47,224 nt of DNA from positions 1-47,224 of the IMG/VR virus record IMGVR_UViG_3300027872_000011; one strand, given 5' to 3'. This DNA is from a virus. A program made the translations under genes and the position numbers. A model generated the notes under the pieces. The model had not been told where the DNA came from. It ran no database searches and saw only the letters and a list, made by a program, of their open reading frames with translations. This document shows positions 1 through 47,224 of this stretch, piece after piece (within the stretch, counting starts at the first letter, position 1; each line of letters starts with the position of its first letter).

Positions 1-126
1 CCACAGATTCGGAGGTGGGTCAACGTTGTCAGCAGGGCCGGGAACTCGCCTATCGGTGAACTGCCTGACATCTGGGACATCGAGTGGCCGGAACTTTACG
101 AGCCCAACATCGTCGAGTTCTCGTCG
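1..126. repeat. Left copy of 126-bp terminal direct repeat (contig overlap)
   Basis: These bases are identical to 47093-47218. The portal reading frame continues across the implied junction, so this looks like assembly overlap of a circular or circularly permuted genome. The 6 bases after the right copy do not match bases 127-132, so the last few bases of the contig are a variant or an error tip. Confidence 0.9.
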
Positions 127-1622: not shown

Positions 1623-1843
1623 AGGTGACACCCCTCCAGCACATGCAGCTTGCCGTGCTCCATGTAGTGCGTCGATCGCATTGGCCCGGCATAGTCCAGC
1701 GTACCGAGGCAGCAAGCGCCCATTGCAGGCCAGTCTCCACGCGCTGGCGTGGGTGGCTGCATCACACTGACGCGCCGATAGGCCTTCGAGTTCGCCTGCC
1801 CATGTCGGGGCTTGCAGACCTTGGGCATGGAGCGCCAGCTCAT
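1586..1843 (-). CDS. Hypothetical protein, last gene of the minus operon
   Basis: 85 residues; family not recognised. The start ATG overlaps the stop of the upstream 43-residue gene (ATGA), as throughout this operon. The protein is rich in Met, Cys, His and Trp, with scattered Cys-Cys and WWHC-like spots but no clean zinc motif. Its 3' end runs 37 bases into the opposing minor head gene, so the two transcripts would be antisense there. Coding status rests on the overlap architecture only. Confidence 0.5.
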   Translation of the reverse strand: MSWRSMPKVCKPRHGQANSKAYRRVSVMQPPTPARGDWPAMGACCLGTLDYAGPMRSTHYMEHGKLHVLEGCHLYAWWHCGAIGM

Positions 1844-1944
1844 GCCCCAACCTGCAGAAGAACTCTATCGGCCCCGCGCCAAGCCATCGCAACCTCATCG
1901 ACAGCCAGCAGCGTGGCCAGGTCAGCGTCCGACCATACCGTCGA
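1838..1944. repeat. Direct repeat copy 1 (107 bp)
   Basis: Matches 2666-2772. The first 74 bases are identical and the remaining 33 carry 5 mismatches. Both copies code the same C-terminal peptide on the minus strand and include the start of the following gene. Confidence 0.92.
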
Positions 1945-6062: not shown

Positions 6063-6280
6063 GACTTGCCGACTTTCTTCAGCGCCGCCCTGCAAGACTC
6101 GGAGCACGCGACCCTATCAACGGACGGTCGCCAGCAGGCTTTGCACTCCAGAATGCCGTCGTATGACCAGCCGTCACCCCACTGAGACTCGGAGCCACAG
6201 TGAGTGCACGTCCATATTCGGACGCCGCGGATGACGTTGCTGTGGTCGTCGATCTTGCCATGCCTTCCACAGGTCGCCAT
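6059..6280 (-). CDS. Small zinc-ribbon protein
   Basis: 73 residues. Several Cys pairs or singles are spaced as in zinc ribbons: an N-terminal TCGRHG, then CTHCGS, CKACW and CSESC, enough for two zinc sites. The ATG at 6280 overlaps the stop of the initiator gene (TGATG); a start five codons upstream is possible. It is the first gene after the replication initiator, so it may assist in DNA replication or transcription, but this is inferred from position only. Confidence 0.68.
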   Translation of the reverse strand: MATCGRHGKIDDHSNVIRGVRIWTCTHCGSESQWGDGWSYDGILECKACWRPSVDRVACSESCRAALKKVGKS

Positions 6281-7617
6281 CACCCCACCTCCCAAGGCTT
6301 CCGCCCCGACTTCGCATCCGCCGACCTCTGCTCCGGCGTCGTTGATTTCATGTACTCCGACTTGCGAAGGGACTCGGCGCGAAGCTCATCGTCGGACTTG
6401 ACGCGGGGCTGCACCGTCGACCTGGCCAGCTCCATATCCTTGCGAAACACCCGCTCGGATCGCTGCCGGTCGAGTGATTCCGACAGGGCCTGCGAAGCCC
6501 TCTCGATCTCGATGGGAGGGCTAGTCGGGTCGGGTCGCGGCTGCTTGAGGACGCAGGTCCCAACGCCCGGCTCGACGGTCTTCAGCCCGGACCCGACGAG
6601 CTCCGCGATGGTCGGCTCCGGAGTCACCCCATGCCGCCGGTCATACTCCGCCTGCTGCTCCAGCGGACTCAGCTCCCGCACCGGCTCAGCATCCGCCTGC
6701 GCCCGCCTGGGTAGCGTGTCCTCGCCCCGAGCCCGTCGCAGGTAGACGGCGTTTCGCTCGTCCTCCAGCCAGCCCAGCACGCGCTCCAGCGAGTGTGGTG
6801 CCCACAGCGCGGAGCCGGTCCACCAAACCCACGTCTCGATCTTCCGCTCGGCCGCATCCCAGTTGAGCTCGATCGCCGCCATGAATCGCTCCTCGATGGC
6901 CTCCAGGCTCGGGTAGAGCCCGGACTCGACGACCCGCTCCAGTGCCCGGACGATGGCCTCGACGGCGATGTCGATGGCCTGGACCGTCCCTCGCTTGGGG
7001 CGAACGCATCGTGGGTGCTCGGAGTAGCGCTGGCGCTCGTACTCGTCGATGCGAATTGCGATCGGCCTGAGTGCTGGGTCGCGCTTCGGTCGTCCGGACA
7101 GCGTCGTGATTGGTCGGGTGTCCATCTCGACCTTGACTCCTGGCAGACCAGACTGGCGCGGCCTCCGCGACATTTGGGCCGAGCTGCTCTGATCTGAATT
7201 TAGGTTCTCTTGTTTTAACTTAGATGTAGGAAAGTCGCATGTAGGTCGCATCTGAGTCGCATGTAGGTCGCATGTAGGTCGCATCTGAGTCGCAAAACCT
7301 GACGCCGAGACCAGCGCCACGCGGTACCCGGGCAGCTCTCGACCGCCTGAATCCGGGACCGTCGAGGCCTCGATCCAGCCGCCGGAGCGGAGTCGCCCGA
7401 GCGCCCTGTAATATTGCGATTTGGAGACGCCGAGCTTCGCGCACAGCCACTCCCGCGCAATCCAGACGGCGCCCCGACCAGGCTCGATGATGTGTTCTGC
7501 GCCCCAGGCCTGCATGAGTCGGAGCATCCGGAGAGCGGAGCAGTCACGACCGAGGAGGGTCAGGTCAGCGCAGGGGGTGGACAGTAGGAGGGGAGTGGCG
7601 TACGATGCTGATTGCAT
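6280..7617 (-). CDS. Winged-helix replication initiator-like protein
   Basis: 445 residues. Residues about 30-102 read as a winged helix: VWIAREWLCAKLGVSKSQYY, then RALGRLRSGGWIEAS, then a wing ending GYRVALVS. A hydrophilic linker with an 11-residue tandem repeat (ATQMRPTCDLH) follows. It is encoded by six 11-bp DNA repeats with an adjacent AT-rich tract, the arrangement of a lambda O-type initiator with its origin inside the gene. The C-terminal half has a Trp-rich helical segment (IETWVWWTGSALW) and a long charged tail. I see no polymerase, primase or helicase motif. It is the first gene of the minus operon. I infer origin binding; a transcriptional regulator is the alternative. No clear Shine-Dalgarno sequence precedes the ATG. 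Confidence 0.62.
   Translation of the reverse strand: MQSASYATPLLLSTPCADLTLLGRDCSALRMLRLMQAWGAEHIIEPGRGAVWIAREWLCAKLGVSKSQYYRALGRLRSGGWIEASTVPDSGGRELPGYRVALVSASGFATQMRPTCDLHATQMRPTCDFPTSKLKQENLNSDQSSSAQMSRRPRQSGLPGVKVEMDTRPITTLSGRPKRDPALRPIAIRIDEYERQRYSEHPRCVRPKRGTVQAIDIAVEAIVRALERVVESGLYPSLEAIEERFMAAIELNWDAAERKIETWVWWTGSALWAPHSLERVLGWLEDERNAVYLRRARGEDTLPRRAQADAEPVRELSPLEQQAEYDRRHGVTPEPTIAELVGSGLKTVEPGVGTCVLKQPRPDPTSPPIEIERASQALSESLDRQRSERVFRKDMELARSTVQPRVKSDDELRAESLRKSEYMKSTTPEQRSADAKSGRKPWEVG
7191..7299. other. Candidate replication origin: 11-bp iterons plus AT-rich tract
   Basis: Six consecutive units begin at 7234, 7245, 7256, 7267, 7278 and 7289, exactly 11 bp apart, each starting GTCGCA. 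The first five continue as GTCGCATGTAG or GTCGCATCTGA; the sixth is degenerate. A degenerate seventh unit may precede at 7223. Next to them, 7191-7233 holds 30 A/T of 43 bases in a GC-rich genome. An 11-bp period is one helical turn, so bound proteins would stack on one face. The whole lies inside the putative initiator gene, as in lambda ori within O. Confidence 0.62.
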
Positions 7618-7831
7618 TCGATGGTGTTCTGAGCCCGCGCGAACGGGGTTGGAGGATGGGGCCCGGGGGAGAAATCCCGCCGGGCTTCGTCTTGCATGGT
7701 ACCTGAAGGTCGGAGCCTGCGCTAGTCGTCGCTCGTCGCCGCGAGAATGGCGTCACTCTGACCACGGTCGCGCAGGATGAGACGCTCATGGGTTGCGCTC
7801 CGTCTAACGTGGGTGCACATTGCTTGGCGAG
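7618..7831. promoter_or_regulatory. Divergent intergenic region between minus and plus operons
   Basis: These 214 bases lie between the initiator gene (leftward) and the first plus-strand gene (rightward), so they should contain divergent promoters. No convincing -35/-10 pair stands out. A strong hairpin lies at 7661-7685 (about 10 bp with one bulged G and a GAAA tetraloop). It has no T-run, so it is more likely a leader structure than a terminator. Confidence 0.4.
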
Positions 7832-8079: not shown

Positions 8080-8109
8080 CCAGCCCCGTCCGCGTAGAGC
8101 GTTCGGGGC
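8080..8109 (+). promoter_or_regulatory. Repeated pre-start hairpin, copy 1
   Basis: The outer stem GCCCCG/CGGGGC with an inner CGC/GCG forms a hairpin ending 9 bases before the GTG of the 8119 gene. It is identical over 30 bases to 8562-8591. Another small hairpin (CTGAGC/GCTCAG, 8062-8079) overlaps the preceding stop codon. There is no T-run, so it is not a typical terminator. Confidence 0.6.
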
Positions 8110-8561: not shown

Positions 8562-8591
8562 CCAGCCCCGTCCGCGTAGAGCGTTCGGGGC
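8562..8591 (+). promoter_or_regulatory. Repeated pre-start hairpin, copy 2
   Basis: Identical over 30 bases to 8080-8109. It ends 12 bases before the ATG of the 8604 gene. Confidence 0.6.
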
Positions 8592-9189: not shown

Positions 9190-9498
9190 GTGAGCGATTC
9201 AATCGGACACGAAACAATCGGCCAACCCGACGAGACAATCACCGGCGCCAGCGAGCAAGAGATTGCCGCCTCGATAGCCCGTGCGATCGACGCACTATCG
9301 GAGGTCGCCCAATACCTGCCCATCGACACGGCGGTTATGAGCAGGCTGCGAGCGAGCCTCCATGGAGCGTGGCTCCAGCTGCTCGAGGACGTCGGGGTGT
9401 GCAACGACGACGACCTGCTAGACGAGGGTGAGTCCGGCGAGGGTTGGGCCTCGGCCTCGGCGGACGGGACGACCCTGGTCACCGAGCTATCCGAATAG
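9190..9498 (+). CDS. Acidic hypothetical protein, 102 aa
   Basis: GTG start just after the third hairpin. An N-terminal helix (EQEIAASIARAIDALSEVAQYL) and a second helix are followed by a very acidic tail (DDDLLDEGESGEG). It is small and acidic, as DNA mimics or inhibitor proteins often are, but there is no specific match. Its 3' end overlaps the end of the opposing winged-helix gene by 12 bases. Confidence 0.48.
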   Translation: MSDSIGHETIGQPDETITGASEQEIAASIARAIDALSEVAQYLPIDTAVMSRLRASLHGAWLQLLEDVGVCNDDDLLDEGESGEGWASASADGTTLVTELSE

Positions 9499-9978
9499 CG
9501 GGGCCCATCGTTTGGCAGCAGCCCAGGCGCGCGAGCCAATTCGGCGCTTTGGGTGGGCGGCATCGTAGCGGGTGCCGTCAGCGCGCAGAGTCAGGGCGAA
9601 GCCGAGCGCGAAAGTTCGAAGCGGGTCGCGTGCCAGTCTGGTCGGGCGCGATATTGTGACTAGGTAGTTGAGCTTTTCGAGGGCGGTGATGTGGCGTCGG
9701 ATGGTGTTCTCGGCGCAGCCACCGGGGACTCTCAACCCATCGCAGACTAGTGGCACGAACCCATCTTTGTCGGCGAAGGCGTAGCAGACCATAAGGGTGT
9801 GCCGCACACTGGTGAGTAGACCGTCGTCGGCGATGGCCTGGAAAGGTACGTTGACCGAGTTCGGGAGCTCACGTAACATCACCGATGGTGCTAGCACATC
9901 CGTGTGTGTTACACCAATAGGTGCCAGGGGCCGGGCATTGGCGTTGCTCGACCCCTGGCGGGTGACGCCGGGGGCCAC
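9487..9978 (-). CDS. Winged-helix DNA-binding protein
   Basis: 163 residues from the GTG at 9978, or 130 from the ATG at 9879. The core reads as a replication- or regulator-type winged helix: DGLLTSVRHTLMVCYAFADK, then a recognition-helix-like AENTIRRHITALEKLNYLVT, then a basic tail. It is the only minus-strand gene inside the rightward accessory block, a position typical of a transcriptional switch. The short gap to the divergent gene at 10026 holds back-to-back -10-like boxes. With the later start, palindromes at 9880-9897 would form an upstream operator. Target unknown. Confidence 0.6.
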   Translation of the reverse strand: MAPGVTRQGSSNANARPLAPIGVTHTDVLAPSVMLRELPNSVNVPFQAIADDGLLTSVRHTLMVCYAFADKDGFVPLVCDGLRVPGGCAENTIRRHITALEKLNYLVTISRPTRLARDPLRTFALGFALTLRADGTRYDAAHPKRRIGSRAWAAAKRWAPLFG

Positions 9979-12996: not shown

Positions 12997-13230
12997 GTGA
13001 GCGGCTGGAGCGACTACGAGCACTGGCGCAACAAGACCAAGGGCGCCAAGCAAATCGTGATGGGGCACTCGGTCCTCATCAGCATCGTCACCAGCAGCGG
13101 ACGACCCTGGAGTCTCGACGAGTACATCGGCGCGATGCGCAGGGAGTATCGGCACGCGGGCGTGGATTGCCCCGTTGACATCTGCAGGGGTTACGTGAAA
13201 GAGGTGGTGGATAGTGCCTATATTAGATGA
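12997..13230 (+). CDS. Hypothetical protein upstream of helicase loader, 77 aa
   Basis: GTG start; the 3' end overlaps the loader start by 17 bases. Compact protein with a basic helix (DYEHWRNKTKGAKQ), a beta-like SVLISIVTSSG, and a helix with Cys (VDCPVDICRGYVKEVV). The overlap suggests coupling to the loader. It may be a small DNA-binding replication partner, but this is inference. Confidence 0.5.
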   Translation: MSGWSDYEHWRNKTKGAKQIVMGHSVLISIVTSSGRPWSLDEYIGAMRREYRHAGVDCPVDICRGYVKEVVDSAYIR

Positions 13231-13966
13231 ACCTGATGATATGTACCTCACGCCTACCGAGGTGCAGCGCGAGGTGTCGAACTACATGACGGCCCAAGCG
13301 CTGCGCAGCGGCGAGACTCCTGCCGAGATGCTGGCGAGGCCGAACGGTGGGGTATTCCGGGCGCTCGCCCAGATGCGTGTCACTCGCCAGAAGTATCGGC
13401 ACCTGACCGAGTGGACGCCCACTCACAAGAAGAGCGACGACGTCGAGTCCAGGACGGGGTCGATATCGGATTCGGTGCAGAGGACCATCAAGACGAATGC
13501 GGTGGTCGAGGGCGCGGGTGTGCATGGGATGAGGGAGTGGCAGGCGCTCAAGGGCGAGAAGGGTCAGGGGCTGCTGCTGCTCGGTGGCGCGGGCGAGGGC
13601 AAGTCGCTGCATGCTGCGATGCTGCTGGTCGGAAATGCTCTTGAGGTCGAGCGGGAGGGGGTGCATGTTGCCGAGTCGCAGCTCTGCGTGAACATCGGAC
13701 TTCGGAGGGAGCGCGAGCGCGAGGCTGCGATGTCGCCTCTGCAGTCAGCGCCACTGGTCGTCGTCGATCACATGGGGGTTCGCAAGCATCAGAGCGGGTG
13801 GGAGGCCGGCGTGGTTGAGTTCCTCCGGGGTCGGTGGGAGGCTGGGCGCAAGTGCGTGCTGACGTTTCGCGGGGATGTGGGGGCGTTTCGGCGGGTGTAT
13901 GGTGCGGATGGGTGGGCGACGGTCGAGCGGTTCTGCACGGTGATGACGGTTAGGAGGGGGCGGTGA
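13214..13966 (+). CDS. DnaC-like AAA+ helicase loader
   Basis: 250 residues. The Walker A is GGAGEGKS at about 124-131 and the Walker B strand LVVVD is at about 181-185, in the DnaC/IstB-type order, with a DVGAFRRVYG...VERF end that fits the loader's sensor region. Loaders of this family place the replicative helicase on origin DNA. No phage helicase is encoded here, so host DnaB is the likely partner, together with the initiator at 6280-7617. Oddity: the residue after the Walker B Asp is His rather than the usual Glu, which may weaken ATP hydrolysis. GTG start with GAGGTGG upstream. Confidence 0.7.
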   Translation: MPILDEPDDMYLTPTEVQREVSNYMTAQALRSGETPAEMLARPNGGVFRALAQMRVTRQKYRHLTEWTPTHKKSDDVESRTGSISDSVQRTIKTNAVVEGAGVHGMREWQALKGEKGQGLLLLGGAGEGKSLHAAMLLVGNALEVEREGVHVAESQLCVNIGLRREREREAAMSPLQSAPLVVVDHMGVRKHQSGWEAGVVEFLRGRWEAGRKCVLTFRGDVGAFRRVYGADGWATVERFCTVMTVRRGR

Positions 13967-15222: not shown

Positions 15223-16158
15223 ATGACAATTGAAGTAATGAGGGTGATTGAGTGTCTTGGCGATGGGCGTATTGAGAGGGTGTTCGAGGGGGACATTGGA
15301 ATCGATGAGGTTCGAGCCCTGCTCGATGCCAAGAATGGCGAGCGATTCAATGATGATGAGTCCCCAGGCGATGAGGTCGCCGAGCGTTTGGAGGGTCACT
15401 CTCGCAGGGCCGTCGACATGGATGCCGAGTCCTGCGATGTGCCGGCATCGAGCATCGCGCCAGATCGAGATGGCCTCACGCAGAGAGCCGAGGAGCTGAG
15501 CGAGCTGAGCGAGCTGGCCAGGAATAGGGGCGAGCTGAGCGAGCTGGCCAGGAATAGGGGCGAGAAGCTCAACTCGATCTTAGGCGCCGTCAGGCTGCTC
15601 GCCGGTGTCCTGGCCAGCGGTGTAAAGATCACGACTTGGTCCAACATCCCCAAGCTGCTCAAGCAGATGATGGCCCGCGCGACCGAGATGCGTGACGAGC
15701 AGGCGGCCGTTGACGGGGAGACGAGCAATCTGCTGAGGGCGCTCAGCCGACTCGGGATTCATCAGTTCTCGGCCGACACCTATGACGACGTCGGGGCTGG
15801 CAGCAAGCGACTGCAGCTGATTGCGCACGACCTCGACATCTTGAAGCGGGACGGAATTCGTCTCACCACTCCGGTTGATGCGTACGTTGATGACTCGCCG
15901 TTCAGCCCCAACTCCGTCCATCGAGGCGACAAGCTGAGTGAGATCGGGAGGCTCCAGAAGAGAATCAGCGGGCAGATGCTGGATCTCGCCACCGAGGACG
16001 GGTTCGTCACGGAGGGGATGGACGCAGTCGAGTCCAGAGCAAGGGTTCTGGAATGGTCCGCCGCGATGGACCGCAATGCCCGACAGGTCCGCGAGATCGA
16101 GCGCCTCGCTGCAATGGACGGCGTCGTCCCGGAGCCACCAGATGCGAGTGATTCCTGA
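15223..16158 (+). CDS. Large hypothetical helical protein, 311 aa
   Basis: The start at 15223 is chosen for a GAGGGG ribosome site; upstream in-frame Met codons exist. The N-terminal region is acidic, with an exact 10-residue tandem repeat (ELSELARNRG twice) made by a 30-bp duplication at 15501-15560. It is followed by a short hydrophobic helix (LNSILGAVRLLAGVLASGV) and long charged helices to the end. No domain recognised. The late accessory position, next to small membrane proteins, makes a lysis or envelope role conceivable but unsupported. Confidence 0.55.
   Translation: MTIEVMRVIECLGDGRIERVFEGDIGIDEVRALLDAKNGERFNDDESPGDEVAERLEGHSRRAVDMDAESCDVPASSIAPDRDGLTQRAEELSELSELARNRGELSELARNRGEKLNSILGAVRLLAGVLASGVKITTWSNIPKLLKQMMARATEMRDEQAAVDGETSNLLRALSRLGIHQFSADTYDDVGAGSKRLQLIAHDLDILKRDGIRLTTPVDAYVDDSPFSPNSVHRGDKLSEIGRLQKRISGQMLDLATEDGFVTEGMDAVESRARVLEWSAAMDRNARQVREIERLAAMDGVVPEPPDASDS
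15501..15560. repeat. Two exact 30-bp tandem repeats
   Basis: Units 15501-15530 and 15531-15560 are identical and in frame, adding ten residues to the 311-residue protein. This looks like a recent slippage duplication. Confidence 0.9.
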
Positions 16159-46018: not shown

Positions 46019-47224
46019 ATGGCCCGACCCCGGAACTCCGATGGCACGTTTGCATCCAGCGCAGCCATCGCAAGGCGCGATTCGCAGCCGGTGAGGCGCG
46101 GCGACGTCTTCAGTGGTCCCATCACTGGGCTCGGCGGTCACAACTCGAAGACTGCGTGCGACGCCTGGCAGCCTGAGATCGGTCAGGGCCAGCTCACTCA
46201 GGAAAATTCGTTTCGATACCGAGGCCTTGTCCGCCGCGTCGTCACACAGGAGCCGCGCGATGCGATGCGCAAGTCGTGGGGCATCAAGGGGCTCGACCAG
46301 GAAGAGCGAGCTTCGTTCGGGTCGTTCAATCAGAGGCGGCATTTTGATACAAAGTTTACCGAGCTTAGGGAGCTGGCGCGCAAGACGGGTGGAGCCGGCG
46401 GTCTTATGGACATCGACGACGGCAATGGTGGCGACCTGTCAAAGCCCGTCGACTTCAGTAAAATAAGGCGAGTGGGTTCGCTCACGGTCATGGACCGATA
46501 CGAGCTCGATGTCCGCGAGTTCGTCCACAATATAGAGGCAGGTGAGCTCTGGGTCCCCAAGGCCTACTACATGGTGTCGATGGGAAACGCCGAGGTGCAC
46601 CCCAGCCGCATGCTCATCATGCATGGAATCAAGCTCACCAACCGTGAGATGATGATGAACCAGGGATGGGGCGAGTCCTACATCAATGCGATTTGGAAGG
46701 CGCTTAGAGACTATCTGACGACTCACTCGTACCTCGCTGAGGCCGTGACCAGGCTGACGCAAGGGGTTCTCACGATGCCTGCGCTTGAGGGGGCAATGAC
46801 CGGCTGCGATTCCAAGGCGGTAGAAGACCGGATGGAGATGCTCTCTCTTTGGATGAGTGCACTCGGCGACATTGCGCTGACCGGCGACGAGAAATACGAG
46901 GTCGTTCAGCGAGGGTTCAACGGGCTGGCTGATGTAGCCAAGACGTTCTTCGACGCACTTGTTGTCGAGACCGAAATCCCCGCGAGCATCCTCGGCGGCC
47001 AAACTCCGGGCGGCCTCAACACCGGGGAGAATGCGGGCGAGTGGCAGTCGTGGAGCTCTTACCTAGGTGGCGAGCAGACCCGAACATACAACCCACAGAT
47101 TCGGAGGTGGGTCAACGTTGTCAGCAGGGCCGGGAACTCGCCTATCGGTGAACTGCCTGACATCTGGGACATCGAGTGGCCGGAACTTTACGAGCCCAAC
47201 ATCGTCGAGTTCTCGTCGATGTTG
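46019..47224 (+). CDS. Portal protein, N-terminal part (continues at base 1)
   Basis: 402 codons, open to the contig end and continued by 1-576. Recognised as DUF1073/Phage_portal_3: ENSFRYRGLVRRVVTQEPRD early, a wing region, SRMLIMHGIKLTNREMMMNQ and GWGESYINAIWKALRDYLTT. Next come SLWMSALGDIALTGDEKYEV and the EIPASILGGQTPGGLNTGEN segment before the stem. The ATG lies 21 bases after the terminase stop. The last 6 bases disagree with the matching left-end sequence, so the final two codons shown here are doubtful. Confidence 0.88.
   Translation, partial: MARPRNSDGTFASSAAIARRDSQPVRRGDVFSGPITGLGGHNSKTACDAWQPEIGQGQLTQENSFRYRGLVRRVVTQEPRDAMRKSWGIKGLDQEERASFGSFNQRRHFDTKFTELRELARKTGGAGGLMDIDDGNGGDLSKPVDFSKIRRVGSLTVMDRYELDVREFVHNIEAGELWVPKAYYMVSMGNAEVHPSRMLIMHGIKLTNREMMMNQGWGESYINAIWKALRDYLTTHSYLAEAVTRLTQGVLTMPALEGAMTGCDSKAVEDRMEMLSLWMSALGDIALTGDEKYEVVQRGFNGLADVAKTFFDALVVETEIPASILGGQTPGGLNTGENAGEWQSWSSYLGGEQTRTYNPQIRRWVNVVSRAGNSPIGELPDIWDIEWPELYEPNIVEFSSML
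47093..47218. repeat. Right copy of 126-bp terminal direct repeat
   Basis: Exact match to bases 1-126, in the same portal frame. It marks the circular closure of the contig. Confidence 0.9.

What the first reader, a model, noticed from the sequence alone, without database searches (positions are those of the whole stretch)
7191..7299. Lambda-like origin embedded in the initiator gene: six 11-bp iterons beside an AT-rich tract
Seen: units at 7234, 7245, 7256, 7267, 7278 and 7289 with an exact 11-bp period. They sit just after the winged-helix part of the gene in coding order and are followed by a 43-base tract with 30 A/T in a GC-rich genome. Known: lambda O carries its iterons and AT-rich unwinding region in the middle of its own gene. 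Inference: this is the replication origin, bound by the protein it lies in. One full helical turn per unit would line up the bound proteins on one DNA face. The array is not needed for the protein, since it encodes only an 11-residue linker repeat.
Basis: partly seen in the sequence, partly recalled or inferred. Interest (0 to 1): 0.8.

Follow-up and report, generated by a model that had tools for sequence, protein, structure and literature searches.

The report
Phage replication origin inside initiator gene
A GC-rich contractile-tailed phage carries six 11-bp DNA repeats and the most easily melted stretch of its whole genome inside one gene that looks like a replication initiator, which is the layout of a self-encoded replication origin known from lambda, SPP1 and staphylococcal plasmids; here it sits in a protein too divergent for sequence searches to place.

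Summary
Six GTCGCA cores lie at exact 11-bp steps (7234-7289), the only array of four or more copies in the record. The adjacent AT tract (7191-7233) is the least stable 30-, 43- and 60-bp window of all 47 kb. Both lie in ORF 6280-7617(-), the array at codons 107-128, just after a weakly recognised winged helix.

No close relative was found, so I tested the architecture elsewhere. Among 81 initiator-family genes chosen without regard to repeats, 41% carry such arrays (neighbour ORFs 7%); in 12 of 33 the gene's weakest 40-mer starts right after the array (1.35 expected). Of 61 distinct phage 'replisome organizers' chosen by N-domain only, 60 carry 11-bp arrays, typically near codon 104; 42 of the 60 have the weak DNA at the array's end (6.1 expected).

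Best reading: an in-gene replication origin bound by the protein it encodes. It resembles lambda and pSK41 in layout, but its units are 11 bp, head-to-tail and non-palindromic, as in the replisome-organizer class. It is a new member of a known kind. Binding and origin activity are inferred. GC skew agrees but is confounded by gene strand.

The parts
6280..7617 (-). Initiator-like gene, 445 aa; N-terminal winged helix, linker encoded by the array and AT tract, helical C-terminal part
   Evidence: ORF and translation; weak hits to PHROG 391 (O-like), 270 and 428 (replication initiation), E 0.06-0.09, and to HTH_36; codon-position GC pattern of a coding frame in nearly all blocks
7312..7542 (-). 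Predicted winged-helix DNA-binding domain (about residues 26-102)
   Evidence: AF2 topology H26-38, H55-62, H66-75, beta hairpin 80-102, low pLDDT 50; hhalign with the replisome-organizer family in register over the HTH, E 7.6e-4 but probability only 25%
7234..7299 (-). Six head-to-tail 11-bp iterons; gene-strand core TGCGAC, mostly ATGCGAC(CTAC/TCAG)
7223..7233 (-). Possible degenerate seventh unit (GATGTAGGAAA on + strand)
   Evidence: sequence
7191..7233 (.). AT-rich tract, candidate DNA unwinding element; weakest duplex of the record; the gene's weakest 40-mer starts 4 nt after the array in coding order
6613..7170 (-). C-terminal helical region (inferred partner-interaction domain)
   Evidence: AF2 all-helical, low confidence
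13214..13966 (+). DnaC-like helicase loader, candidate partner, about 6 kb from the array
   Evidence: PHROG 3277 E 3e-6
7618..7819 (.). Divergent intergenic region upstream of the initiator gene; contains no GTCGCA or TGCGAC site

Best explanation
Positions 7191-7299 are the phage's replication origin, embedded in its own initiator gene. Inferred mechanism: the N-terminal winged helix binds the six non-palindromic 11-bp units head-to-tail, about one helical turn apart so that the bound copies stay on roughly one face. The bound complex strains the adjacent AT-rich tract, the weakest duplex in the genome, and opens it. The C-terminal part and the DnaC-like loader then bring in a DnaB-type helicase. 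The array encodes a tolerant linker between the protein's two halves, so its DNA can evolve as a binding site. Shown here: the array, the AT tract, their order, and the same layout in recognised initiators. Inferred: binding, opening, loading.
For: Only array of 4 or more copies in 47 kb, directly next to the least stable 30/43/60-bp window of the record. The 11-bp period is incompatible with codon-level selection. Weak hits to O-like initiators with an N-domain in register with the replisome-organizer HTH. DnaC-like loader and Erf in the early region. Architecture test in 81 unselected initiator-family genes: at least 3 copies 41% vs 6.6% of neighbour ORFs vs 4.9% of codon shuffles, at least 4 copies 20% vs 0% vs 0.1%; gene-weakest 40-mer just after the array 12/33 vs 1.35 expected, mirror side 2. 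Replisome-organizer family: 60/61 with 11-bp arrays starting at median nt 311, DUE at the array end 42/60 vs 6.1 expected. Lambda O passes the same DUE test: last iteron ends at gene nt 433, weakest 40-mer at 435. SPP1 oriL lies within gene 38 with direct repeats and a DUE (PMC6316719); pSK41 ori lies within rep (PMC5703833).
Against: No homologue of the protein found in viral contigs, phages or plasmids, so presence or absence of the array in true relatives is untested. HMM and structure support is weak (E 1.1 though top of 579 ORFs; pLDDT 50; Foldseek not significant). The loader gene is 6 kb away and divergent, not adjacent as in lambda O-P. Skew turns at the gene-strand switch.
Confidence: 0.85

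Rival explanations
1. The array is an operator: the winged-helix protein, or another phage regulator, binds it to control transcription of its own gene rather than replication.
For: A DNA-binding protein with an array of sites in its own gene; a second small HTH gene lies at 9487-9978(-).
Against: No GTCGCA/TGCGAC site in the upstream intergenic region; the sites lie over 300 bp inside the gene. It does not explain the weakest DNA of the genome abutting the array, nor the same pairing in recognised initiators.
Confidence: 0.06
2. The repeat is protein-level or slippage: a tandem duplication tolerated in a disordered linker, with no DNA function.
For: It encodes a repetitive linker; the 33-bp superunit appears twice.
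Against: Differences between units fall in the 4-bp spacer while the 6-bp core is invariant in all six. The period is out of frame. The layout recurs at the same place in 60/61 replisome organizers with different cores.
Confidence: 0.05
3. The array is a recombination or packaging site, such as integrase arm sites or terminase sites.
For: GTCGCA 11-bp arrays also occur 36-48 bp from integrase-like ORFs in some bacterial genomes and in non-coding pairs in marine contigs that also carry a terminase-small-like ORF.
Against: No integrase found among the window ORFs scanned; the terminase genes are at 43.6-46 kb, about 8 kb away on the circle; the array lies inside an initiator-like gene with a DUE.
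Confidence: 0.04

Closest known systems
Phage replisome organizers / DnaD-like helicase loaders (PHROG 2514; e.g. Vibrio phage jenny, Cellulophaga phi18:3, Solobacterium SMO_1P); functional prototype SPP1 gp38 with oriL inside gene 38
   Same: Winged-helix-type N-domain followed at once by 11-bp head-to-tail units, then AT-rich DNA, then a C-terminal part. The L007 member has the same ATGCGAC core. SPP1 oriL, direct repeats plus DUE, lies within gene 38 (PMC6316719).
   Different: Window protein is longer (445 vs mostly 200-280 aa) and not significantly similar. Family iterons are mostly (C/T)GACAA(A/G)C(A/G)A-like; the window's score far below the family median (1.6 vs 9.7 bits/unit). In most annotated members a helicase gene follows directly; here none does.
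Phage lambda O / ori-lambda (PF04492)
   Same: Origin in the middle of the initiator gene; iterons followed directly by an AT-rich tract (PMC7466680).
   Different: Lambda: four 18-bp iterons at 20-24 bp steps, P gene adjacent. Window: six 11-bp non-palindromic units, DnaC-like loader 6 kb away, no PF04492 hit.
RepA_N plasmid initiators (pSK41 Rep)
   Same: Winged-helix N-domain binds Rep boxes located centrally in rep; the derived protein there is a dispensable linker; C-domain contacts host replication machinery (PMC5703833).
   Different: No RepA_N Pfam hit for the window protein; RepA_N iterons are mostly semi-palindromic repeats (PMC7145576).
DUF1376 and HTH_36 initiator-like genes of prophages and plasmids
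   Same: 41% of an unselected mixed sample carry in-gene arrays, spacings clustering at 11 and 22-24 bp, weak DNA often at the array end.
   Different: Cores are diverse; the window protein is only a sub-threshold HTH_36 match (E 0.043).

Membership tests
Initiator gene with internal origin (general kind) | Tandem repeats of a candidate initiator-binding site inside the initiator's reading frame | tested here: met
   Six units at 11-bp steps in codons 107-128
Initiator gene with internal origin (general kind) | AT-rich, easily melted DNA beside the repeats | tested here: met
   Weakest 30/43/60-bp window of the record, 4 nt after the array in coding order
Initiator gene with internal origin (general kind) | Initiator binds the repeats and replication starts there | not testable with these tools
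   Needs EMSA and a plasmid or marker-frequency assay
Phage_rep_O / lambda O | Phage_rep_O (PF04492) homology | tested here: not met
   No PF04492 hit; only weak PHROG 391 O-like, E 0.064
Phage_rep_O / lambda O | 18-bp iterons at about two-turn spacing | tested here: not met
   Window 11-bp; lambda steps 20, 24, 23
Replisome organizer / DnaD-like loader (PHROG 2514) | Significant N-domain homology | tested here: inconclusive
   hmmsearch E 1.1, rank 1 of 579 ORFs; hhalign E 7.6e-4, probability 25%, in register
Replisome organizer / DnaD-like loader (PHROG 2514) | 11-bp units right after the N-domain, then weak DNA | tested here: met
   Window lag-11 identity 0.82, lag-33 0.82; family 60/61
Replisome organizer / DnaD-like loader (PHROG 2514) | Helicase or loader gene directly downstream (usual, not universal) | tested here: not met
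   Loader at 13.2 kb on the other strand
RepA_N | RepA_N (PF06970) domain | tested here: not met
   No hit

The most novel reading that the evidence does not exclude
About-one-turn (11-bp and multiples) iteron arrays written into the linker codons of winged-helix initiators, followed at once by an unwinding tract, are a general, fast-evolving origin class across many phages and prophages. The window's initiator is a sequence-unrecognised outlier of that class that still uses a (T/C)GAC-type iteron in the same orientation.
Probability: 0.5. Interest if true: 0.6.

Novelty: new member of a known kind. Interest (0 to 1): 0.45.

Why it matters
It gives a concrete, testable origin and initiator for a phage whose early genes have almost no database matches. 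The accompanying survey shows that out-of-frame 11-bp periodicity in an initiator-like gene, with the gene's weakest DNA at its end, marks a candidate origin without needing homology. That could place candidate origins in many uncultured phages. It also suggests how a linker can carry a fast-changing binding site while the flanking DNA-binding domain stays conserved, which makes iteron/recognition-helix co-evolution testable.

Tried and rejected
Relatives of the window protein, Erf and loader: none, so direct phylogenetic testing of repeat number was impossible; genome relatives cannot be drawn for a virus record. Structure: single-sequence AF2 was low confidence and Foldseek not significant. 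A special 'GTCGCA' origin motif shared by all initiators was considered and dropped. GC skew: cumulative minimum 6947 and purine minimum 7221, but gene strand switches there; one minus-strand ORF right of the array (9487-9978) keeps plus-strand-positive third-position skew, a single hint only. Integrase arm-site reading rejected for lack of an integrase. Rfam: nothing. Literature searches for the iteron sequence or for 11-bp in-gene phage origins found no prior report in the held library; most subscription papers are not held. SPP1 could not be fetched.

Full report
OBSERVATION. The window is a whole IMG/VR virus record of 47,224 bases. No other 6-mer in the record has four or more copies at one period, and 100 Markov-shuffled records never exceed three. 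The 43-base tract 7191-7233 has 30 A/T and is the only region of that composition. In nearest-neighbour stacking energy it is the weakest 30-, 43- and 60-bp window of the whole record. If the weakest window were placed at random, the chance of landing within 60 bp of the array is about 0.25%.

GENE. Array and tract lie in ORF 6280-7617(-), 445 aa. The GC of third codon positions is the highest of the three in nearly every block of this frame and least marked across the array. Hits are weak but coherent: PHROG 391 (O-like), 270 and 428 (replication initiation), and HTH_36, all at the same place. A single-sequence AlphaFold model has the order helix-helix-helix-hairpin of a winged helix, at low confidence. 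The array encodes codons 107-128. Because 11 is not a multiple of 3, the units are read in all three frames. The 6-bp core is invariant while the 4-bp spacers change, so what is repeated is the DNA. The six units are non-palindromic and point the same way.

SURROUNDINGS. An Erf-like annealing protein and a DnaC-like helicase loader lie at 10.5 and 13.2 kb. The rest is a contractile-tailed phage: head protease, capsid, sheath, tape measure, baseplate, terminase. No integrase was found among the ORFs scanned. The record's ends share 126 identical bases, so the genome probably closes to about 47.09 kb. Cumulative GC skew is lowest at 6947 and purine skew at 7221, but gene direction also changes there.

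RELATIVES. No homologue of the initiator, Erf or loader was found. I therefore asked whether the architecture is a property of initiators in general. A first scan for GTCGCATNNNN arrays in viral contigs found 12 loci, six of them (three distinct genes) in other initiator-like genes just after the N-domain. One of these (L007) belongs to the 'replisome organizer' family by tblastn, although its protein is not recognisably related to the window's; the two arrays align core for core.

UNBIASED TEST 1. I took 81 genes by Pfam family only (DUF1376, HTH_36, Phage_rep_O, Phage_rep_org_N). At least three copies of a 7-mer within 130 bp at non-codon spacing occur in 41%, against 6.6% of neighbouring ORFs and 4.9% of codon-shuffled genes; four or more in 20% against 0% and 0.1% (Fisher p 1e-11 and 1.5e-10). 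Spacings cluster at 11 and 22-24 bp. The gene's weakest 40-mer starts within -5 to +30 bp of the array's end in 12 of 33, against 1.35 expected and 2 on the mirror side. Lambda O gives +2 by the same measure and the window +4.

UNBIASED TEST 2. Eleven annotated phage homologues of L007, by PHROGs a DnaD-like loader family, mostly next to helicase genes, show units at 11-bp steps right after the N-domain, more or less degenerate; their cores vary. A viral-contig search by N-domain alone gave 80 loci and 61 distinct genes. Lag-11 identity exceeds the 99% shuffle threshold in 60 of 61, with the array starting at median nucleotide 311. In 42 of those 60 the weakest DNA of the gene starts at the array's end, against 6.1 expected. 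Shuffle statistics ignore relatedness among these genes, but cores differ widely between them. A position weight matrix from these iterons scores the window array as one of the two best places in the record, and far better in gene orientation than reversed (0.76 vs -4.4 bits per unit), though well below the family median.

MECHANISM. The established systems are: lambda O (four 18-bp iterons plus AT tract mid-gene, PMC7466680); SPP1 gp38 (oriL inside gene 38 with direct repeats and a DUE, theta replication reconstituted in vitro, PMC6316719); and pSK41 Rep (winged-helix N-domain binding Rep boxes mid-gene, dispensable linker, PMC5703833). By analogy the window's protein binds its own array, opens 7191-7233, and passes a helicase through the DnaC-like loader. 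The binding, opening and loading steps are inferred.

MEMBERSHIP AND NOVELTY. It works like an in-gene origin. It is not a lambda O family member (no PF04492 match, different iterons), not RepA_N, and its membership of the replisome-organizer family is unresolved (hmmsearch E 1.1, top of 579 ORFs; hhalign E 7.6e-4 at 25% probability). In-gene origins are a known kind, so this is a new member, in an unusually divergent protein. The least documented part is the generality of the 11-bp arrays. The held literature shows no survey of it, but that library is incomplete.

CAVEATS. HTH_36 also matches non-replication regulators, which dilutes test 1. Some loci in each set are near relatives (for example L374/L375, L421/L422). 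Open-end and start-codon choices were automatic. No experiment or read mapping was possible.

Noticed in passing
window 9487-9978 (-): Second small protein with a weak HTH_36 / PHROG 428 (replication initiation) match, 163 aa; no repeat array inside it. Its third-position skew follows the plus strand although it is coded on the minus strand.
   Followed up: partly
window 1-126 and 47093-47218: Exact 126-base repeat at the two ends of the record; the genome is probably complete and closes to about 47.09 kb.
   Followed up: partly
window 8080-8109 and 8562-8591: Identical 30-bp hairpin (CCAGCCCCGTCCGCGTAGAGCGTTCGGGGC) just after two successive ORFs; folds well (z -2.6 and -3.7), no U tract; perhaps a terminator or processing signal.
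   Followed up: partly
window 1838-1944 and 2666-2772: 107-bp direct duplication, 95% identical.
   Followed up: no
window 15500-15564: Perfect 30-bp tandem repeat, 2.2 copies.
   Followed up: no
L136, L139, L144, L201, L224 and similar marine-type contigs: Pairs of converging GTCGCA arrays (about 11-bp period) in non-coding DNA; the same contigs carry a terminase-small-like ORF and another recurrent ORF. Possibly an origin or packaging region of one phage group.
   Followed up: partly
L240, L282, L286, L338, L347: GTCGCA 11-bp arrays 36-48 bp from integrase-like ORFs (L240, L282 and L286 are Lachnospiraceae-type genomes); candidate integrase arm-type sites.
   Followed up: partly
OY282365.1 (L246, L254, L276 and others), JAFEAM contigs (L251, L253, L281), Sphingobium G005: Several to many dispersed TGCGAC 11-bp arrays across single bacterial genomes; function unknown.
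   Followed up: no
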